Virus record (IMG/VR): IMGVR_UViG_3300048591_000021
Location: 1 to 20,242 of that record
Strand: one strand, 5' to 3'
Length of the DNA: 20,242 nt
Source of the DNA: a virus
Below, in pieces: positions 1 to 12,193 of this stretch; the stretch's first letter is position 1, and the number at the start of each line of letters is the position of its first letter. A program made the position numbers and the translations under genes. Under the pieces are notes generated by a model, which ran no database searches, was not told the DNA's origin, and saw only the letters and a list, made by a program, of their open reading frames with translations.

Positions 1-158
1 AATATACATTACATAATATATCTAGACAGGGACAGTCTAAGTACGACAAGGTCTTTATAACTAACATTGAATATATTGGCAAGGAAGATGGTTATTGTAT
101 CTCGGTAGATAGTGAAGATAAGACATATATCACCAAAGACTATATAGTTACACACAAT
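1..158 (+). other. C-terminal end of an intein at the terminase P-loop
   Basis: About 52 codons of an intein are visible, in the terminase frame. The segment ends with typical intein blocks F and G: YCISVDSEDKTYITKDYIV then THN, followed by Ser (codon 159-161) as the first C-extein residue. The penultimate His and terminal Asn are at 153-158. The extein after the junction (SFLLAVYAWLKM, then KIVVVGSGFRQSK) matches the terminase stretch that follows GKS/GKT of Walker A, so the insertion very probably splits the P-loop between Lys and Ser. The N-terminal splicing half and any homing endonuclease lie outside the window. Confidence 0.85.
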
Positions 159-3089
159 TCATTCTTACTAGCTGTTTATGCTTGGCTAAAAATGGTACTT
201 ATACCAGAAACCAAGATTGTTGTGGTAGGCTCTGGCTTCCGTCAGTCTAAGATTATTCTTGAGTATATGGAAACTATCTGGAAGAAGGCCCCTATACTTC
301 GTAGTATATCAGACAGAAGGGATGCCCTAAGTAAAGATGTTGATAGGTGGAGGGTAGCTTTCCATGATAGTTGGGCTATAGCTGTACCTATTGGTGATGG
401 TCAGAAAATTAGAGGTTTGCGTGCCCATACAGTTATTGCGGACGAATTTGCTTGTCTAGATGAGAATACTATAATAGAAACCAATAATGGTTTAATGAGA
501 ATTAAGGATACTTTTATAGATGGTATCCAAATACTAAATCAAAACGGTCAGTTAGAAACTCCATCCAAATTTATTAAAACACCATTAACAGACGTATATG
601 AAATTAAGACTAGTCGTGGCTATGGCTTTAAATGCTCTAATATACATAAAGTAAAAACAAGCAGTGGTTGGAAGTTAGCAAAAGACCTGACCAAGTATGA
701 CTATTTGGTGTTTGACAATCAATATGTATTTCCTAATAAAGAAAAGGATGTTCTTACAAGGAAAGAGGCGTGGTTATTAGGACTGGTGGTAGCCAAAGGA
801 ACTTGTACGAAGAAAAATGGACTATCTATTAAAACAACAGACGTAGATACTGTAAATAAAATACGTAACGAATATTCCGAGTACCTGCCCAAAATTTATA
901 CTAGAACAGCTTATGTAGACAGTAGGGGCTGGAATTGTAAACAGTCATATGAAATTGTGTTTAAAAAAGCTTTGAGAGATAGGTTTTTTGAACTTGGCCT
1001 AGAGTATGTAACATCACACAAGAAAGAGATTCCTAGTGCTATATTAAAATCATCAAGAGATGTTGTTATATCCTTCTTATCTGGTTTATTTGATGGGGAT
1101 GGTTCTGCTTTCATTTGGGAAAGTAGCGGTAGGAAGATGTTAGGTATTGCCTATTATTCTGTTTCTGAAAAATTGATTAATGAGATACATATACTATTGT
1201 CTAAATTAAATATCATAGGTAATAAAGTATCTAGGAGTAGCAAAATGTCTAATAATATGCAGTGGATGTTAAGGTTTAATAGTGACTATGCGCATTTCCT
1301 ATTTGAAATGTTAAATATTGATAGGTGGCACGCTATTAATATAGCAGACCTAGATGTGGATAAGAAACCTAAAAAGCTAGGAGTTACATTTGCAAAAGAC
1401 AAGAAAAAATGGAAATGCTCTCCATACTATTGTGGTAAACTAAATAATCTTGGTTATTATCATACAGAACAAGAGGCTATAGATGCTGCCAAGTCTTTTT
1501 GGGAAACTCACCCAAGTCTCTTAAAGGTTAGTAGCGTTACTAAACTGGCTGTACAACAACAGCTATATGATTATGAGTTGCCCGACACACATAGTTTTTA
1601 TGGAAATGGCTTTGTACAACATAACTCCATCCCTCTTCAAATATATGAAACTGTTATTGCTGGTTTCGGTGCTGTTTCTGCTGACCCAATTGATAACGTT
1701 AAAGCTGCGGCTAGACGTAGGAAGATGAAGTCTCTTGGTTTATGGAACGAAGAGTTGGAGGCCAGTTATGAAGAAGGAAGGGTTGGCAACCAGTCTATTA
1801 TTACAGGTACAGCCGATTATGCCTTCAAACCATTCGCCCAATACCATAATCAGTATCAGCGTATCATAAATAGTAAGGGTGATATGCGTGTAATAGCAGA
1901 TATCTATGGTGGAGAAGAGAATGTACCAGAAAGCTTTGATTGGCGTAACTATGCAGTTATTCGTATTCCATATGAGCTTATTCCAGAAGGTTTCATGGAT
2001 GACAAGACCGTAGCCCGTGCCAAAGCTACTGTTCATAATGGTATTTTCCAAATGGAATATGGGGCCGTCTTTACCGAAGATAGCGAGGGATTCTTTAAGA
2101 GAAGCCTTATCGAGAGTTGTGTAACTAGCGATATTCGCCCCATCTATCTTCCTTCTGGCCCAGTGTGGTTCGACGCTGTAACCAAGGGCAACCCTAAAGA
2201 GAAATATGTATATGGAGTTGACCCTGCATCTGAGAACGATAATTTCACTATAACAGTCCTACAGTTAATGGAAGACCATACACGCGTGGTCTATTGTTGG
2301 GCCACTAACCGTAAGAACTTTAAGGAAAGACAAGATGCGGGTTTATCAAACGAGCATGATTACTATGCTTATTGTGCTAGAAAAATACGTGATTTAATGA
2401 GAACTTTCCCTCCCGTCCGTATTGGTATGGATTCCCAGGGTGGCGGTGTCGCTGTTATGGAAGCATTACACGACCCTGATAAAATGTATCCAGGTGAGCA
2501 ATTCTTGTGGCCTATCATCAATCCTGAAAAATCGGCGGACACCGACTTAAAGCAGGGCTTACATATAGTAGAGCTTGTTAACTTTGCTAGTGCTGAGTGG
2601 ACTGGTAATGCCAACCATGGTATGCGTAAGGATTTGGAGGATAAGGTTCTTCTCTTTCCAAGGTTCGACCCAATCACACTTGGACTTGCTCATGAGAACG
2701 ATGCGGCTGCCTACAAAGCAGGAGACAAGAGCCGTCTATACGATTCCTTAGAAGACTGTGTTATGGAGATAGAGGAGCTTAAGGATGAGCTAGCCATGAT
2801 AGTTATGACTAAGACTCTTATGGGTAATAGAGATAGATGGGATACGCCAGAAATCAAGGGTAAGGATGGAAAGAAAGGTAGGCTGAGAAAGGACCGCTAT
2901 TCTTCTTTGGTAATAGCTAATATGTTGGCTCGCGTTATACATAGAACGGACGTTACGCCTACTTATATCGTTATTGGTGGCGCGGTCCACAATATGGTAC
3001 CAGCCAACCCAAATATGGGCCAATTATACGCTCCAATAGGAAGTCATGTTTTTGAGCCAGGAATTTTTCAGGCAGTTCGTAGGATTTAG
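1..3089 (+). CDS. terL: Terminase large subunit, 5'-partial, with two inteins
   Basis: ATP-driven motor and nuclease that packages phage DNA through the portal. The frame starting at base 3 is open from the left edge to the TAG at 3087-3089, so the ATG at 192 is internal and the true start is outside the window. Extein parts seen: 159-452 (start of the ATPase just after the P-loop, then Walker B VIADEFA at 432-452) and 1626-3086 (coupling motif SIITGTA, then an RNase H-like nuclease). Likely nuclease acids are Asp at 2220 (YGVDPAS), Asp at 2430 (IGMDSQGG) and Asp at 2892 (RKDRYSS), in the order and spacing usual for terminase nucleases. The GK of Walker A is not visible because it lies upstream of the first intein. 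The protein works only after both inteins splice out. It is followed after 47 bases by the portal gene, the normal order. The family call is firm; the packaging type (cos, pac) cannot be told. Confidence 0.93.
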   Translation, partial: YTLHNISRQGQSKYDKVFITNIEYIGKEDGYCISVDSEDKTYITKDYIVTHNSFLLAVYAWLKMVLIPETKIVVVGSGFRQSKIILEYMETIWKKAPILRSISDRRDALSKDVDRWRVAFHDSWAIAVPIGDGQKIRGLRAHTVIADEFACLDENTIIETNNGLMRIKDTFIDGIQILNQNGQLETPSKFIKTPLTDVYEIKTSRGYGFKCSNIHKVKTSSGWKLAKDLTKYDYLVFDNQYVFPNKEKDVLTRKEAWLLGLVVAKGTCTKKNGLSIKTTDVDTVNKIRNEYSEYLPKIYTRTAYVDSRGWNCKQSYEIVFKKALRDRFFELGLEYVTSHKKEIPSAILKSSRDVVISFLSGLFDGDGSAFIWESSGRKMLGIAYYSVSEKLINEIHILLSKLNIIGNKVSRSSKMSNNMQWMLRFNSDYAHFLFEMLNIDRWHAINIADLDVDKKPKKLGVTFAKDKKKWKCSPYYCGKLNNLGYYHTEQEAIDAAKSFWETHPSLLKVSSVTKLAVQQQLYDYELPDTHSFYGNGFVQHNSIPLQIYETVIAGFGAVSADPIDNVKAAARRRKMKSLGLWNEELEASYEEGRVGNQSIITGTADYAFKPFAQYHNQYQRIINSKGDMRVIADIYGGEENVPESFDWRNYAVIRIPYELIPEGFMDDKTVARAKATVHNGIFQMEYGAVFTEDSEGFFKRSLIESCVTSDIRPIYLPSGPVWFDAVTKGNPKEKYVYGVDPASENDNFTITVLQLMEDHTRVVYCWATNRKNFKERQDAGLSNEHDYYAYCARKIRDLMRTFPPVRIGMDSQGGGVAVMEALHDPDKMYPGEQFLWPIINPEKSADTDLKQGLHIVELVNFASAEWTGNANHGMRKDLEDKVLLFPRFDPITLGLAHENDAAAYKAGDKSRLYDSLEDCVMEIEELKDELAMIVMTKTLMGNRDRWDTPEIKGKDGKKGRLRKDRYSSLVIANMLARVIHRTDVTPTYIVIGGAVHNMVPANPNMGQLYAPIGSHVFEPGIFQAVRRI
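453..1625 (+). mobile_element. Complete intein with LAGLIDADG endonuclease, after terminase Walker B
   Basis: A 391-residue in-frame intein. It begins with Cys (453-455, block A CLDENTIIET), has a block B-like stretch with CSNIH and GWKLAKDL, and ends with block F/G (YDYELPDTHSFYGNGFVQ, then His-Asn), the Asn codon at 1623-1625, followed by Ser. Splicing would join DEFA to SIPLQ, restoring a normal terminase sequence. The middle carries two LAGLIDADG-type helices: WLLGLVVAKG (771-800) and FLSGLFDGDG (1074-1103). The first has Lys (795-797) where the metal-binding acid is expected; the second keeps Asp (1098-1100). A block H-like stretch follows (KLINEIHILLSKLNI). Next is an AP2-like domain (1380-1503), listed separately. 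Splicing residues look intact, so splicing is likely functional; DNA cleavage may be impaired. Confidence 0.93.
1380..1503 (+). other. AP2-like DNA-binding domain inside the intein
   Basis: About 41 residues, GVTFAKDKKKWKC, then GKLNNLGYYHTEQEAIDAAK, follow the AP2/ERF pattern: G-V plus basic beta strands with a conserved Trp, then G-K-x-x-x-LG-x-[YF], then T-x-x-E-A and a short helix. AP2 domains are known in phage homing endonucleases, more usually of the HNH type, where they help bind DNA. Here the domain sits between the LAGLIDADG unit and the C-terminal splicing blocks, so it probably adds target-site affinity. It was recognised by pattern only. Confidence 0.65.
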
Positions 3090-3091
3090 GT

Positions 3092-3130
3092 GTATTATAA
3101 TTACAGTGCGATTGTAATACGATTAAAGGA
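3092..3130 (+). promoter_or_regulatory. Hairpin/leader element before the portal gene
   Basis: The gap between terminase and portal holds an 11-pair imperfect inverted repeat with two G-U pairs (GTATTATAATT at 3092-3102, GATTGTAATAC at 3110-3120) around a 7-base loop. It is followed by GATTAAAGGA, which includes the portal ribosome binding site. There is no T-run, so it does not look like a terminator. A similar element (GTATTATAA, AATACG, TTAAA, AGG) precedes the connector gene at 8781. It could be a late promoter, an RNA-processing site or a translational element. Confidence 0.45.
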
Positions 3131-3136
3131 AATTCT

Positions 3137-5332
3137 ATGACGAAAAAGTATCCTAAGAGCGAGATGGTCAACTCTATTCTTCATTCTGATGAACCAGCCT
3201 TTACGTCTTGGCTAGAGGGTGATGCCCAATCTAAACAGGAGGCATTCAAAGAATCTGCTAAGTCTCTTTCTGAGTACATTGGTGTCTCTAGGGCAGATAC
3301 CCGTTTCAACGATTTCTCCAATTTGCTTCCTGGCATATCTGGTCGCCCTGGCCTAACTAGGGATGGATATAATTATTTTCGCCCAGAAGAAGCTAGTCCA
3401 ACACGCCACAGAGATATTATACTAAGATGTAATGATATCTATCAGGGTGTAGGTTTAATCCAAAATGTTATTAATCTGATGGGAGACTTTACTGCCCAGG
3501 GCGTTAGGCTTAGTCATCAGAACAAGAAAATAGAGAAGTTTTTCAACAATTGGTTCAAGAAGGTGAATGGGCCAGAACGCACAGAGCGTATGGCAAACTA
3601 CCTATATCGTTCAGGAACCGCTATTGTTCGTAAGCAAACCGCAAAGATTAGTGTCCGAACCGGAGAAAAATTATACAAAACGTCTGCCGACCCAGACCTC
3701 AAGAATGAGGATGTACAACCACTTTATAAGACAGAGAAGCGTGAAATTCCTTGGAGGTACACATTTCTCGACCCTGCTACGGTAGTAACGGTGGGCGGCT
3801 CCCTATCTTCTTTTGTTGGTAATCCTAGATATGCTATTGTTTTGCCAGACAAGATTCGTCGTCAAATAATGTCTCCTAAGACAGAAGTTGAGAAGCAGAT
3901 AGTAGATATGTTACCAGACGATATTAAGAACGCCGCTAAGAAGAAAGCCCCTTATATTCTTCCTTCTGAAAAAACAATGGTCGTCCACTTTAAGAAAGAT
4001 GACTGGGATGAGTGGGCCTATCCTATCATCTACTCTATCTTCAAAGATGCGGTAGCTTACGAAAAAATGAAGCTGGCCGACATTGCTGCTTTAGACGGAG
4101 CTATCTCTAATATCCGTATCTTTACCGTCGGTGATATAGCTAATAACATTCTACCTACAGCTTATGCTGCTGCCAAACTAGCAGAAATCCTGCAAAGCCA
4201 TACTGGTGCTGGTACCATGGATATCATTTGGGGTGAAGACCTTAAGCTTCAAGAAACCAAAAGTGAGGTTTATAAGTTTTTGGGCGAAGAGAAGTACAAG
4301 CCCATTCTGAACGCATTATACGCTGGTTTGGGCATTCCACCAACATTGACTGGAACCTACGGAGCAGCAGGCACCACCAATAATTTCATTTCGTTGAAGA
4401 CTTTAACGGAACGCTTGGAGTATGGTCGTGCCCGTATTATAGAATTTTGGGAGAAGGAAATCGCCATAGTACAAGAGGCTATGGGTTTTCGCTTTCCGGC
4501 TCAGGTAGAGTTCGACCTTATGAACTTGGGTGACGAGCAATCCATACTGAGGTTGTATATGGACCTTGCCGACAGACTTATGATTTCCGATGAGACACTA
4601 CAAAAGGTATTCAAACAAGACCCTGAGATGGAAAGACTAAGAATCAACCGTGAGGCAAAGGATAGGGAAGCAGGCAGAAGGGTTGGCAAGACAGGGCCTT
4701 TCTTCGAGCCAGAACCAGACGAAAGCCTAAAGAAGATTGCATTGCAGCAGGGTGTTGTGACGCCAAGCCAGTTGGGCTTGGACCTACCTCCACCTAAGGA
4801 AGGCGAGGTTACTATGATGGATAAGAAGCATGAGCAGGATATGAAGAGGCAAGAGTTAGCTAATAAACAGAAGATTGCTCAGCAGAAGATGAAGGGTAAG
4901 CCAGGGCAGGGGAGACCAGTCGGTAAGAAGGATTCTACTAAGAGGAAGACTAAGACTTTTAAGCCACGCTCTAAAGCGGCTACTATGGTATGGGCAAATC
5001 GCGCACAAGCCGAGATAGCTGAGATTTTGAACCCAGGACTTTTGGCAACATATGGCAAGAAAAACTTCAGGATGCTTAGTACATCTGAGGCTGAGGAAGT
5101 AGAAAGAATCAAGTTTGGGGTATTATCAGAGATAGAACCTTTTACCACTATTACTGCGGATGTTATCAAGGGTGCCCTTAATTTTTCATTCACTTATTCA
5201 GAAATGAGTAAATTATATAGAAAACATCTATCTCAGGTGTTAGGTGAAAATGGGGAAACTTTATCAGTAGACGATATTAAGCAGATACAATCTTGTGTAT
5301 ATGCAGACTATTATGGAGGAGAAGATGAGTAA
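3137..5332 (+). CDS. Portal protein
   Basis: Dodecameric ring at the capsid vertex through which DNA enters and leaves, and the docking point for the terminase and later the neck. 731 residues, somewhat long for a portal. Position right after the terminase and before the prohead protease is diagnostic. The N-terminal region has the usual portal pattern of an early helix (GLIQNVINLMGDF, residues 106-118) followed by a mixed alpha/beta wing region; around residues 380-440 is the GIPPTLTGTYGAAGTTNNF type of segment seen in portals. Unusual is a strongly basic, Lys/Gln-rich stretch at about 560-613, followed by a further C-terminal domain. Such a basic tail could face DNA or scaffold (inference). 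AAAGGA lies 7 bases before the ATG. The last 8 bases overlap the next gene. Confidence 0.88.
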   Translation: MTKKYPKSEMVNSILHSDEPAFTSWLEGDAQSKQEAFKESAKSLSEYIGVSRADTRFNDFSNLLPGISGRPGLTRDGYNYFRPEEASPTRHRDIILRCNDIYQGVGLIQNVINLMGDFTAQGVRLSHQNKKIEKFFNNWFKKVNGPERTERMANYLYRSGTAIVRKQTAKISVRTGEKLYKTSADPDLKNEDVQPLYKTEKREIPWRYTFLDPATVVTVGGSLSSFVGNPRYAIVLPDKIRRQIMSPKTEVEKQIVDMLPDDIKNAAKKKAPYILPSEKTMVVHFKKDDWDEWAYPIIYSIFKDAVAYEKMKLADIAALDGAISNIRIFTVGDIANNILPTAYAAAKLAEILQSHTGAGTMDIIWGEDLKLQETKSEVYKFLGEEKYKPILNALYAGLGIPPTLTGTYGAAGTTNNFISLKTLTERLEYGRARIIEFWEKEIAIVQEAMGFRFPAQVEFDLMNLGDEQSILRLYMDLADRLMISDETLQKVFKQDPEMERLRINREAKDREAGRRVGKTGPFFEPEPDESLKKIALQQGVVTPSQLGLDLPPPKEGEVTMMDKKHEQDMKRQELANKQKIAQQKMKGKPGQGRPVGKKDSTKRKTKTFKPRSKAATMVWANRAQAEIAEILNPGLLATYGKKNFRMLSTSEAEEVERIKFGVLSEIEPFTTITADVIKGALNFSFTYSEMSKLYRKHLSQVLGENGETLSVDDIKQIQSCVYADYYGGEDE

Positions 5333-5612
5333 AGTAGTAATTACGTTAGATACGGCTACAAAGGAGTTGGATGTAAAAGTAGACGGTAACTCTTTAGACG
5401 ATGTTACTAGTGTCTCTATTTATAAGTATGAAGATTATCATGATGAGGAAAACGTAAATATTTCTATCAATCAAAGGAAAGAACCAGAAGAAAAGAACGG
5501 AATGTGTATCCACACAACTCTGACTGCTTCTGAGAGTGGTGACCTAGTTGTTGATAAAAATGCCCCAAGTCCTGTTCAAAGTTCCATTGCCAACTTTATA
5601 AAGAGTAGATAA
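5325..5612 (+). CDS. Small hypothetical protein between portal and protease
   Basis: 95 residues from the ATG at 5325, which has a strong GGAGGAG at 5315-5321. An in-frame ATG at 5295 would lengthen it by 10 residues but lies deeper in the portal gene and lacks as good a ribosome binding site. The start overlaps the portal stop (ATGAGTAA) and the stop overlaps the next start (TAATG), so the three genes are translationally coupled. The protein is acidic, rich in beta-prone residues at the N-terminus (VVITLDTATKELDVKV), with no signal peptide or membrane segment. I recognise no family. The position suggests a head-assembly accessory role. Confidence 0.8.
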   Translation: MSKVVITLDTATKELDVKVDGNSLDDVTSVSIYKYEDYHDEENVNISINQRKEPEEKNGMCIHTTLTASESGDLVVDKNAPSPVQSSIANFIKSR

Positions 5613-7162
5613 TGTCATATCAGATTCCTGTATATAAAGCTGAGGTTGAGGCTGGCATTGCCGAGTTGGTACGTTCCAGCGCCTCTGTTGCTTATTGCGC
5701 TCAGGTTGAAAAGAACCTGGCTAGCCAAAAAGACATCAATGAAATAATGGCTATTCTAGAGAAGTACGACAAGAAGCTTGTGGCCTCTATTGGTGATAGC
5801 GACTTATATCCTGCCAGGTCCATTCTTGCATCTACAGTTTGGAATAAGAATGATGATATTTTCCATAAGGCTGATACGTGGGCTGCACGCCACTCTCCTT
5901 CTCATAAACCCGACAACCTAGAACATAATGAAAAGGTTATAGTGGGGCATATGATTGATACATGGGTTATAGATTCAGACGGTAAGGTAATAGCTGATAA
6001 TACTACTATAGATGACCTTCCAGATTTATTCCACATTTTTAATAGCTCAGTTATATACAGAAGTTGGTCAGATGACGACTTAAGAAAGAAGGTTGAAGAC
6101 TTAATAGAAAAGATAGAAGCTGGTAAGGCTTTTGTATCCATGGAATGTCTTTTCCGTGGTTTTGACTATGGGCTTATACTACCTACTGGTGAGCAGCATA
6201 TTGTGGCCCGTGGCGCAGAAACAGCCTTTTTAACTAAGCATTTGAGGGCATATGGTGGTGAGGGCAAGTACGAAAACTATAGAGTTGGGCGTGTATTACG
6301 TAATATGACGTTCTCAGGCAAAGGATATGTTGGGCGTCCGGCCAACCCAGACAGCGCTGCATTTCCTTGGGAAAACAGTATTAATTTTACAAAAGCAACA
6401 GAAATAAATCCATTTTCAAAAGCATCTGGTGTATCTATATTATGCAAGGGTATTCCTACAGAAGAGGAAGCCACTGCTAACACGAATAACAAACAGGAGA
6501 TTAGTAATATGACCGCAGATATTAACAAGGTTCTTGAAGACCAAGTAGCTGAGCTAAAGGCCCAGGTTAAGACGTTGTCAGACGAGAATAAGACTCTTGC
6601 CACAACGACAACCAAGGCTTCTGTTGAGAAGCTTGAGGCTTCCATTACTGACTTAACTGCAAAGCTTGAGGCTGCTAACGCAGCTAAGGCTGCAAAGGAG
6701 ACTGAGTTGGCTGCTGCTGTTACAGCAAAGGCCGAAGTTGAGAAGCAGCTTGCTGATATTACCAAGGCCAAGACTGACCTTGAAACCGACCTTAACAAGA
6801 TTAAGGCAGACGCAGCAAAGGCAGCACGTATTTCATCTCTTGTAGAGGCTGGCGTTTCCAAGGAAGTTGCAACAACTACCGTAGAGAAGTTCAGCGCTCT
6901 ATCTGACGAACAGTTCGCAGCAATCGCTGAGCTTGCCATCAAGGCAGCTAAAGCTGAATTCCCTCCTGCTGACGATAAGAAGAAAGATGACAAAAAGAAG
7001 AAGAGTGACGCTACAGAATCAGCGCTAGAAACGGCTGAGACTGAAGAGGAGCCTGCTCTTTCTGCATCTGCTAGTGAAGATGACGCAGATAAGACTGTAG
7101 AGACACGTAAAGCTCTAGCAGCTTGGTTTGAGTCAAGTGGTATCGGTGGTAGCACCAAGTAA
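5612..7162 (+). CDS. Prohead protease fused to scaffold protein
   Basis: 516 residues in two parts. Residues 1 to about 260 look like a head-maturation protease: His113 in VIVGHMIDTWVID and Ser176 in AFVSMECLFRGFD are the likely catalytic pair, and the domain ends with a FSGKGYVGRPANP segment close to those in other prohead proteases. Residues about 300-430 are a long Ala/Lys/Glu-rich coiled coil typical of scaffolds, followed by a Lys-rich stretch (DDKKKDDKKKK) and an acidic tail. Known systems use the scaffold to shape the prohead and the protease to remove it. The order portal-protease-scaffold-capsid supports this. A second start at 6509 probably gives free scaffold, as lambda does with C and Nu3. 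The catalytic residues are inferred by pattern and not confirmed. Confidence 0.82.
   Translation: MSYQIPVYKAEVEAGIAELVRSSASVAYCAQVEKNLASQKDINEIMAILEKYDKKLVASIGDSDLYPARSILASTVWNKNDDIFHKADTWAARHSPSHKPDNLEHNEKVIVGHMIDTWVIDSDGKVIADNTTIDDLPDLFHIFNSSVIYRSWSDDDLRKKVEDLIEKIEAGKAFVSMECLFRGFDYGLILPTGEQHIVARGAETAFLTKHLRAYGGEGKYENYRVGRVLRNMTFSGKGYVGRPANPDSAAFPWENSINFTKATEINPFSKASGVSILCKGIPTEEEATANTNNKQEISNMTADINKVLEDQVAELKAQVKTLSDENKTLATTTTKASVEKLEASITDLTAKLEAANAAKAAKETELAAAVTAKAEVEKQLADITKAKTDLETDLNKIKADAAKAARISSLVEAGVSKEVATTTVEKFSALSDEQFAAIAELAIKAAKAEFPPADDKKKDDKKKKSDATESALETAETEEEPALSASASEDDADKTVETRKALAAWFESSGIGGSTK
6509..7162 (+). CDS. Nested scaffold protein from an internal start
   Basis: In-frame ATG (residue 300 of the fused gene) preceded by AACAGGAGATTAGTAATATG. 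This nearly copies the leader of the decoration gene at 7186 (AACAGGAGATTTAAGTAATATG). The predicted product has 217 residues: coiled coil, basic patch, acidic C-terminus. The start separates protease and scaffold at the domain border, which makes independent scaffold translation likely. It needs protein-level proof. Confidence 0.7.
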   Translation: MTADINKVLEDQVAELKAQVKTLSDENKTLATTTTKASVEKLEASITDLTAKLEAANAAKAAKETELAAAVTAKAEVEKQLADITKAKTDLETDLNKIKADAAKAARISSLVEAGVSKEVATTTVEKFSALSDEQFAAIAELAIKAAKAEFPPADDKKKDDKKKKSDATESALETAETEEEPALSASASEDDADKTVETRKALAAWFESSGIGGSTK

Positions 7163-7185
7163 ATAAAACAGGAGATTTAAGTAAT

Positions 7186-7644
7186 ATGGCTCTTAAAGCA
7201 GATAGACACGAAGCGCGCACAGATATTTCATTCTTCATGAATACAACTGGCAATCGTGGTGTAATTGTTGTCCACGACACAAGCGCATCTGGTGCTGGTA
7301 TGGACGCAGCAGCAGCCGTTGTAAAGATTCCAACAGCAGGCTTCTCTGGTAGTTTGCCAGCCGGTTTGCTATTGTGCGACGTTGTAAACTACGACTTAAC
7401 TCGTCAGCATATCAATTGGCACAAAGATGAGGTTCAGATTGGTGGTAAGGTTACGTTGTTGAAGGACGGCTGGGTTGTAACAAACGCAGTTTCCGGCTCC
7501 CCAACAGCAGGTCAGACAGCTTATTATGACCAAAACGGTAACCTAACACCTACAGATGGTGGCGGCGGTGTCAAGGTTGGCCGTTTCCTAACATCCAAGG
7601 ATGCGGACGGTTACGCTAAAGTTGACATTAACATAACAGGCTAA
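7186..7644 (+). CDS. Head decoration / capsid-stabilising protein (probable)
   Basis: 152 residues, small, beta-rich and Gly/Ala-rich, without a signal peptide. The position between scaffold and major capsid is that of lambda gpD-like and DUF2190-like decoration proteins. The C-terminal pattern (GGVKVGRFLTSKDADGYAKVDIN) resembles the end of such proteins, where a GR-x-L plus polar loop plus V-D-I strand closes the fold. AGGAG lies 11 bases before the ATG. It probably binds the expanded shell at three-fold or quasi-three-fold sites (family knowledge). Alternative: another minor head protein. Confidence 0.65.
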   Translation: MALKADRHEARTDISFFMNTTGNRGVIVVHDTSASGAGMDAAAAVVKIPTAGFSGSLPAGLLLCDVVNYDLTRQHINWHKDEVQIGGKVTLLKDGWVVTNAVSGSPTAGQTAYYDQNGNLTPTDGGGGVKVGRFLTSKDADGYAKVDINITG

Positions 7645-10654: not shown

Positions 10655-11613
10655 AATCCTATACACTGTTCAAGGGCGTAAGAAATATCGGCGATACGCT
10701 GATAATGAACGAGCTTGAGAACAATTTGAAGACATTCTTAGATTGGGGCTTCCTAAACATAGGTGGCTTTGTTAATGTTCAGATTCCTACCTCTGGTTCG
10801 TTTGGTGGTAACTTCCATACATTAAGGGTTGCCGAAGACCCATCATATACAGATGGCTCTGTTTGGGAAACAATTCGTAAGGATTGGGTGTGGGAAACAG
10901 GGGTCAACTTTAATGGCATGTCTCCAATCGCTATTTCTGGAGTATATATTAATGGTACGTTTTATGCGCCTAATCACGCAACGTATGGACACCACTATGA
11001 CTACGCTAATGGCCGTGTGATATTCTCTGGTACAGTTCCAGCGGCTAGCAGCGTAACTATGAACTATTCTTACCGTTGGGTACAAGTTGCTCTAGCTAAT
11101 AATTCAAATTGGTTTTATGAAGGGCAGTACGACTCCCTACTTCCAGGCGACCCTCAGTGGACGACATATCATCCTGGTAGCGGAGACTTTTCTTCCCCTC
11201 CTCAACATCGCATTCAGTTTCCAACAATAATTATCGAGGCAGTGCCAAGGGCCAGAAATAGGCCGTATGAAGTTGGTAACACCTCTTTATGGGTGGAGCA
11301 GGATGTGGTTTTCAATATTTTAGCAGAAAATAAATGGGGACGTAACAAGCTGATAGATGTTATAAGGCTAGAGGATAATAGGGAAATATACCTATATGAC
11401 AGTGATGCTGTAGCAAGGTCTGGTTTTAATGCCATAGATTATAGGGGGATGTTGGTAAATACGAGCGGAATGTATCCATATTTAGTTGATAACTTCCGCT
11501 TAGCAAAAGTGTACTTTAAGGAAGTCGTTTTGTCCGAAGTGGAGTCTTTGAATCCAAAGCTTCATGAGGCTAGCGTGAGGGTGACAATGGAATTGGTGCT
11601 TAAACACATTTAG
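10648..11613 (+). CDS. Putative tail terminator / neck structural protein
   Basis: 321 residues, rich in Trp, Tyr and beta strands (for example GVNFNGMSPIAISGVYING and VTMNYSYRWVQVALANN). The C-terminal third reads VVFNILAENKWGRNKLIDVI and VYFKEVVLSEVESLNPKLHE, and ends in a strand (VRVTMELVLKHI). The place between the neck genes and the tail tube is that of the tail terminator or tail completion protein. The start overlaps the previous stop (AAATGGTAG). The 3' end overlaps the oppositely oriented HNH gene by 14 bases, with no coding damage. The family is not recognised with certainty. Confidence 0.5.
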   Translation: MVESYTLFKGVRNIGDTLIMNELENNLKTFLDWGFLNIGGFVNVQIPTSGSFGGNFHTLRVAEDPSYTDGSVWETIRKDWVWETGVNFNGMSPIAISGVYINGTFYAPNHATYGHHYDYANGRVIFSGTVPAASSVTMNYSYRWVQVALANNSNWFYEGQYDSLLPGDPQWTTYHPGSGDFSSPPQHRIQFPTIIIEAVPRARNRPYEVGNTSLWVEQDVVFNILAENKWGRNKLIDVIRLEDNREIYLYDSDAVARSGFNAIDYRGMLVNTSGMYPYLVDNFRLAKVYFKEVVLSEVESLNPKLHEASVRVTMELVLKHI

Positions 11614-12193
11614 AGGAATGTTCTGTTACTAGGCGGCATATCTCTTTGAAACGTTCTTCTGTATATCCGTTCTTCATTTTATTTACATCTTTATGTACCC
11701 ATTGGATATTATCTTTGGTATAGCCTTTTGAACTGTCTATACGGTCCAGTGAGGCTGTTGATTCACCTGGGTTTGTTCTTTTCTTATATGAGGTTTTAAA
11801 GCTTAATTTTAATCCAGTTAACATGCAGACCCCATCCTGCTCCAAAAATAGATTCCACATATCTTCTATAGTGATATCAAAGCTTATTCCTCTTTTTTTC
11901 GCGCCAGCTTTTATCATAGCAAAATAAAACCCAGAGATATCTCCACACCCACGCCACAATTTGTGCTTTTGGCCAAGTATGTGCATACTGTGCTGACATC
12001 CACAGGAAAAGTTATTATCTGGACATCTTTTTAGATAATCATCCCTTCTTTCTACGGTTTTGCCACAGACACACTTACAGGTCCAATACCTATCTGTTCC
12101 TATCCCACTTTTACGTGGCCTACGTTCTGAGGATATTAAAGTAATATGTCCATATACCATACCTGGCTTTCTATCACATGGTAGCTCTTTCAT
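11600..12193 (-). CDS. HNH homing endonuclease, free-standing
   Basis: 197 residues, the only gene here on the - strand. The N-terminal part has a Cys cluster (YWTCKCVCG, Cys39/41/43, and SCGCQH, Cys64/66) likely to bind zinc. The C-terminal nuclease core runs from about 121 to 175: GVCMLTG, then TASLDRIDSSKGY, then DNIQWVHKDVNKMKN, matching phage HNH proteins (Asp150, Asp153, Asn162, His167, Asn171 as candidate active-site residues). Such genes are typical mobile intruders that cut an allele lacking them. It overlaps the 3' end of the neck gene by 14 bases tail-to-tail and uses an ATG after AGGTG, with only 4 bases between. Confidence 0.88.
   Translation of the reverse strand: MKELPCDRKPGMVYGHITLISSERRPRKSGIGTDRYWTCKCVCGKTVERRDDYLKRCPDNNFSCGCQHSMHILGQKHKLWRGCGDISGFYFAMIKAGAKKRGISFDITIEDMWNLFLEQDGVCMLTGLKLSFKTSYKKRTNPGESTASLDRIDSSKGYTKDNIQWVHKDVNKMKNGYTEERFKEICRLVTEHSSKCV

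What the first reader, a model, noticed from the sequence alone, without database searches (positions are those of the whole stretch)
1..1628. Two inteins in one terminase, at the P-loop and right after Walker B
An intein tail ends at 158 before Ser, where the P-loop Ser is expected, and a full intein follows DEFA of Walker B. Both nucleotide-binding motifs of the same ATPase thus need splicing before packaging can work. Inteins favour conserved ATPase motifs, but two in one phage terminase, only 98 extein codons apart, is notable and could delay or condition packaging.
Basis: partly seen in the sequence, partly recalled or inferred. Interest (0 to 1): 0.75.

Follow-up and report, generated by a model that had tools for sequence, protein, structure and literature searches.

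The report
Phage packaging motor split by two inteins
The DNA-packaging motor gene of an uncultured phage carries two self-splicing protein inserts, one in each half of its ATP-binding site, so the motor should be inactive until both are cut out; relatives show this motor is a repeated target for such inserts, with up to three in one protein.

Summary
The finding is confirmed. Codons 1-52 (3-158) are the C-terminal end of an intein that stops exactly at the P-loop GK^S site. A complete 391-aa intein (453-1625) sits at DEFA^S, just after Walker B, exactly 98 extein codons later. Intein-free relatives run through both junctions without a break. The window is the whole record, so the 5' part of intein 1 cannot be read, but 16 distinct complete homologues occupy the same site in related terminases. 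Intein 2 is class 1 with intact splicing residues; its endonuclease has Lys for Glu in the first LAGLIDADG motif and is probably dead.

This terminase family has four intein sites. P-loop plus Walker B recurs in four other lineages, one with three inteins (L180). Two alleles 97.8% identical up to the Walker B site, both with the P-loop intein, differ by the second, which points to stepwise invasion. Two-intein terminases and a class 3 plus class 1 pair in DnaB were already known. Regulation of packaging is untested.

The parts
3..158 (+). C-terminal 52 aa of intein 1 (class 3 type), inserted at the terminase P-loop GK^S; 5' part lies off the contig
   Evidence: Sequence; 49-81% identical (most 67-81%) to the tails of full-length P-loop inteins of the same TerL family
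96..98 (+). Block F Cys (TGT), the initiating nucleophile of class 3 inteins
   Evidence: Invariant C334 in alignment A3 and present in the homologous tails listed
150..158 (+). Block G Thr-His-Asn at the end of intein 1 (Thr of the WCT triplet, penultimate His, terminal Asn)
   Evidence: Sequence ACACACAAT; T352 H353 N354 invariant in A3
159..452 (+). Extein segment of 98 codons from P-loop Ser(+1) to Walker B DEFA
   Evidence: Aligns without gaps at its ends to intein-free TerLs
453..1625 (+). Complete intein 2 (391 aa, class 1: Cys1, SxxH block B, His-Asn end), inserted at DEFA^S next to Walker B
   Evidence: Pfam Intein_splicing and LAGLIDADG_3; AF2 pLDDT 90.5, Foldseek TliVMA intein E 2e-17; 12 full-length distinct homologues plus one shortened at the same site
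774..800 (+). LAGLIDADG motif 1 of intein 2 (LLGLVVAKG); codon 795-797 AAA = Lys where the 12 endonuclease-bearing homologues have Glu or Asp
   Evidence: Alignment; codon
1077..1103 (+). LAGLIDADG motif 2 of intein 2 (LSGLFDGDG), acidic residue retained
   Evidence: D216 invariant in A2
1377..1508 (+). AP2-like module (three short strands and a helix) between the endonuclease and the C-terminal splicing blocks
   Evidence: phrog_99 E 3.4e-5; PF00847 AP2 E 0.004-0.01 in three homologues, below Pfam cut-off; secondary structure
1626..3089 (+). C-terminal extein of TerL (487 aa plus stop), begins with Ser+1 of SIPLQIYETV; the Terminase_6C nuclease match is weak

Best explanation
The gene encodes the large terminase subunit (TerL) of an uncultured tailed phage as a precursor that carries two inteins of different mechanistic class. 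Intein 1 (class 3; block F Cys starts the reaction, the P-loop Ser is +1) interrupts Walker A between Lys and Ser. Intein 2 (class 1; Cys1 starts the reaction, Ser is +1) interrupts the chain directly after the Walker B DEFA. Only after both have excised themselves does the ATPase site exist, so packaging ATPase activity should require two independent splicing reactions (inferred). The two are there because this TerL family offers several conserved homing sites, which are filled one at a time; they were most likely acquired stepwise by homing and not as a designed regulatory pair. In this copy intein 2 has probably lost homing nuclease activity (first LAGLIDADG acid is Lys) but keeps all splicing residues.
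For: Exact junctions against intein-free relatives. WCT triplet and non-nucleophilic residue 1 in complete homologues of intein 1; profile matches solved class 3 DnaB inteins 6bs8, 6rix, 6riy. Complete class 1 residue set and confident intein plus homing endonuclease fold for intein 2. Four sites and eight multi-intein terminases in the family. Alleles L091 and L097 are 97.8% identical over 5,451 nt ending at the Walker B site, both with the P-loop intein, and only L091 has the Walker B intein.
Against: The 5' part of intein 1 and the GK of the P-loop are not in the record, so a defective or split intein 1 is possible in this genome. Splicing is inferred from conserved residues only. L091's contig ends inside its Walker B intein.
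Confidence: 0.88

Rival explanations
1. The pair works as a staged switch: the class 1 Walker B intein splices at once, the class 3 P-loop intein is slow or redox-sensitive and sets when the motor becomes active, delaying packaging until late in infection.
For: Precedent in M. smegmatis DnaB, where a class 3 P-loop intein splices slowly and is inhibited by oxidation while a class 1 intein in the same protein is fast (PMC6195587). Cyanophage Mic1 authors proposed control of packaging by their two TerL inteins (PMC7156551). P-loop intein carriers are over-represented among Walker B carriers (4 of 13 against 2 of 131, Fisher p = 6e-4).
Against: Most relatives lack both inteins, sites and lineages are interchangeable, and near-identical alleles differ in intein content: the pattern of mobile parasites. 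The enrichment is not corrected for phylogeny or for seeding of the searches.
Confidence: 0.12
2. Intein 1 is split or trans-spliced: the N-terminal half and the TerL N-extein are encoded elsewhere, and position 1 is close to a true gene start.
For: The record begins inside the intein and a naturally split class 3 intein has been published (PMC7891396, listed).
Against: The frame is open to the first base, and all 16 distinct homologues at this site with readable 5' parts are contiguous; contig breaks at inteins occur elsewhere here (L091, L103).
Confidence: 0.05
3. Assembly chimera: terminase and intein pieces from different phages were joined.
For: Metagenomic contig; relatives with and without inteins exist.
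Against: Both borders are in frame and exact, the +1 Ser is right at both, and independent contigs from many samples show the same two junctions.
Confidence: 0.03

Closest known systems
Mycobacteriophage TerL inteins, sites TerL1-a (P-loop) and TerL1-e (Walker B) (PMC5050341)
   Same: Same two motifs of TerL invaded; classes 1 and 3 both occur; TerL inteins tested there spliced
   Different: Inteins described per site across phages; no mention of two in one TerL was found in the text; different TerL family
Cyanophage Mic1 TerL with two inteins (PMC7156551)
   Same: Two different inteins in one phage TerL, one with a homing endonuclease
   Different: One in the ATPase and one in the nuclease domain; not at both Walker motifs
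crAss-like Delta phage TerL with two Hint-Hop inteins (PMC7886860)
   Same: Two inteins in one TerL ORF
   Different: Hint-Hop type, TAG-recoded gene
Mycobacterium smegmatis DnaB inteins DnaBi1 and DnaBi2 (PMC6195587)
   Same: One ATPase with a class 3 P-loop intein and a class 1 intein with endonuclease
   Different: Host helicase; second site is motif H4, not Walker B; DnaBi1 is a mini-intein
Haloarchaeal MCM with four intein sites (PMC10643990)
   Same: Several neighbouring homing sites in one ATPase, double occupancy reached mostly by sequential invasion
   Different: Archaeal helicase, experimentally studied
Klebsiella phage RaK2 TerL (NC_019526)
   Same: P-loop GK^T intein with class 3 features (starts Ala, block B DHLW, block F Cys, THN end) in an isolated phage
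   Different: Single intein; TerL annotated as T4 gp17-like; no intein annotated

Membership tests
Class 3 intein (intein 1) | No Cys or Ser at position 1 | tested here: inconclusive
   Off the contig in this genome; 16 distinct homologues at the site start with Leu, Met or Ala
Class 3 intein (intein 1) | Block F Cys and block G Thr before HN | tested here: met
   Cys at 96-98 and THN at 150-158; invariant in homologues
Class 3 intein (intein 1) | Block B Trp | tested here: inconclusive
   Off the contig; W67 invariant in all 13 rows of A3
Class 1 intein (intein 2) | Cys1, block B [TS]xxH, penultimate His, terminal Asn, nucleophilic +1 | tested here: met
   C1, SNIH62-65, H390, N391, Ser+1
Active LAGLIDADG homing endonuclease (intein 2) | Two LAGLIDADG motifs, each with a catalytic acidic residue | tested here: not met
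   Both motifs present, but motif 1 acid is Lys115 (codon AAA, 795-797); all 12 endonuclease-bearing homologues have Glu or Asp. Domain present, activity doubtful
Large terminase subunit (TerL) | Walker A, Walker B and nuclease part next to portal and capsid genes | tested here: met
   Extein aligns to TerLs with SRGFGKS and DEFA; portal and major head protein hits downstream. The GK itself is off the contig
AP2 DNA-binding domain (module in intein 2) | Pfam PF00847 above curated cut-off | tested here: not met
   Best 18.0 bits against cut-off 33.3; called AP2-like only
Functional splicing element | Ligated extein produced | not testable with these tools
   Needs expression

The most novel reading that the evidence does not exclude
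In this phage lineage the terminase is kept as a multi-intein precursor because splicing of mechanistically different inteins at the two halves of the ATP site acts as a coincidence gate that releases motor activity only under the right late-infection conditions.
Probability: 0.1. Interest if true: 0.8.

Novelty: new variant of a known kind. Interest (0 to 1): 0.52.

Why it matters
It gives a phage counterpart of the few known multi-intein ATPases: one motor protein whose Walker A and Walker B are both interrupted, by inteins of two splicing classes, in a family with four homing sites and natural alleles having zero to three inteins. That makes co-invasion, interference between neighbouring inteins and the cost of delayed packaging directly testable. 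It also shows that a screen requiring Cys or Ser in block A would miss the P-loop member.

Tried and rejected
Search for intein 2 alone in viral contigs found nothing, probably because the 8-mer patterns were too specific; an alignment of the Walker B junction worked. Horizontal transfer of intein 2 shown by tree conflict: rejected as unproven; the window's place in the intein tree is weak (62/84) and compatible with the extein tree without a root. Intein and extein identities are poorly correlated (rho 0.21, p 0.06), which is suggestive only. Disulphide geometry in the P-loop intein model could not be measured: no coordinates available. Isolated-phage search for the TerL C-extein gave only a 24% match. 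Genome-collection search gave two MAG contigs only, so no host is named. Paper searches for 'three inteins' with terminase gave no TerL case.

Full report
OBSERVATION. The window begins inside an open frame of 1028 codons (3..3089) with no stop. Codons 1-52 end YITKDYIVTHN|S at base 158; 98 codons of extein follow (159-452); then 391 codons CLDENTIIE...GFVQHN (453-1625); then 487 codons of extein from Ser 1626.

ARE THE JUNCTIONS RIGHT? A search with the C-extein found about 500 relatives in IMG/VR, of which 80 were fetched. Nearly all of the 80 are intein-free at these sites and read SRGFGKS(F/W)... and (I/V)(A/S)DEFASIP... without a break. The window, spliced in silico, aligns to them over about 585 residues at 57-62% identity with no gap at the Walker B joint. 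The insertion points are thus GK^S in the P-loop and DEFA^S directly after the Walker B acids.

INTEIN 1. The record is only 20,242 nt long, so the upstream part is missing. A search with the tail plus P-loop extein brought 115 relatives, among them 16 distinct complete inteins of 299-363 aa at the same P-loop site. None starts with Cys or Ser: residue 1 is Leu, Met or Ala. Block B has DHxW, block F a Cys, block G Thr-His-Asn, all invariant in the aligned set. PMC5050341 defines class 3 inteins by lack of a position 1 nucleophile and a WCT triplet in blocks B, F and G. The window tail has the C and T at the right places (96-98, 150-158). The profile of this group matches the solved class 3 DnaB inteins 6bs8, 6rix and 6riy, and a predicted structure (L083 copy, pLDDT 88) matches PI-SceI and the class 3 DnaB inteins. 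Class 3 for the window's own intein 1 is therefore partly shown (C, T) and partly inferred from homologues (residue 1, W).

INTEIN 2. It has Cys1, block B SxxH, His-Asn and Ser+1, matches Pfam Intein_splicing, LAGLIDADG_3 and Hom_end above cut-off, and folds with pLDDT 90.5 into an intein with a LAGLIDADG domain (Foldseek best 7qss, E 2e-17). Homologues at exactly the same site occur in 13 other distinct TerL sequences. In the first LAGLIDADG motif the window has Lys (AAA, 795-797), where all 12 homologues with an endonuclease have Glu or Asp; from general knowledge of LAGLIDADG enzymes, losing one catalytic acid abolishes cleavage. A single G-to-A change explains it, so a sequencing error cannot be excluded. 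L180's copy has lost most of the endonuclease (262 aa). Residues 309-352 resemble the AP2 DNA-binding module of phage HNH endonucleases (phrog_99; PF00847 below cut-off).

THE FAMILY. A TerL profile was run over all fetched loci. Four intein sites appear: (1) GK^S, used by the class 3 lineage and by an unrelated Cys1 lineage (L166, L180, L293); (2) GDG^(S/T)KIRG; (3) DEFA^S; (4) EY(G/N)A^CF. Several combinations occur: 1+3 in the window, L091, L169 and L166/L168; 1+2+3 in L180 (1723-aa ORF, three inteins, read directly); 3+4 in L162; 1+4 in L293; 2+4 in L297. Among Walker B carriers found by a search blind to the P-loop, 4 of 13 also carry a P-loop intein, against 2 of 131 extein-sampled clusters without a Walker B intein (p 6e-4). 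This is not corrected for phylogeny, and the sampling was seeded with intein carriers.

HOW IT AROSE. L091 and L097 are 97.8% identical over 5,451 nt up to the Walker B site, both with the P-loop intein; from there L091 continues with a Walker B intein and L097 with the plain extein. This is a natural before/after pair: the second intein was gained (or lost) in an allele that already had the first. It fits the haloarchaeal MCM work, where double inteins arise mostly by invasion of single-intein alleles (PMC10643990).

HOW IT WORKS. Shown: positions, reading frame, junctions, conserved catalytic residues. Inferred: that both inteins splice in this phage, that the unspliced protein is inactive (the P-loop Lys and Ser are separated by an intein of roughly 350 aa in the homologues, and Walker B is followed at once by 391 aa), and that no ordered regulation is needed to explain the arrangement. 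In M. smegmatis DnaB a class 3 P-loop intein splices slowly and is redox-sensitive while its class 1 partner is fast (PMC6195587), so a rate-limiting P-loop intein is a testable expectation, not a result.

NOVELTY. Each ingredient is published: P-loop and Walker B TerL inteins (PMC5050341), two inteins in one TerL (PMC7156551, PMC7886860), class 3 plus class 1 in one ATPase (PMC6195587). New, as far as the held literature shows, are both Walker motifs of one TerL occupied, by different classes, recurring across a TerL family with four sites and up to three inteins in one protein. Literature coverage is limited to open-licence papers.

Noticed in passing
L180 (ORF 2184-7352), same contig as L305: A single TerL with three inteins in the ATPase part: GK^S (Cys1 type), GDG^SKIRG and DEFA^S; total ORF 1723 aa.
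   Followed up: partly
L162 6675-7838; L293 2201-3331; L297 2084-3211; L298 4852-6000; L300 723-1853: A fourth intein site at EY(G/N)A^CF downstream of the ATPase motifs, combined with other sites in three of these terminases.
   Followed up: partly
window 11600-12193 (-): Free-standing HNH/endonuclease VII-like gene on the opposite strand among structural genes (phrog_3322 E 9e-27), a further likely homing element.
   Followed up: partly
alignment A3, residue 62 (L083 numbering; L083 121-1182): The block B Thr/Asp position (xxH) is an invariant Cys in the P-loop class 3 inteins, close in sequence to the conserved His and Trp; a possible redox partner of the block F Cys.
   Followed up: no
L370:2258-4924 (RaK2 TerL): Isolated jumbo phage RaK2 TerL carries an unannotated P-loop GK^T intein with class 3 features.
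   Followed up: partly
window position 1; L091; L103: Several contigs end inside or at the border of these inteins, as expected if intein-plus and intein-minus alleles coexist in the sampled population.
   Followed up: no
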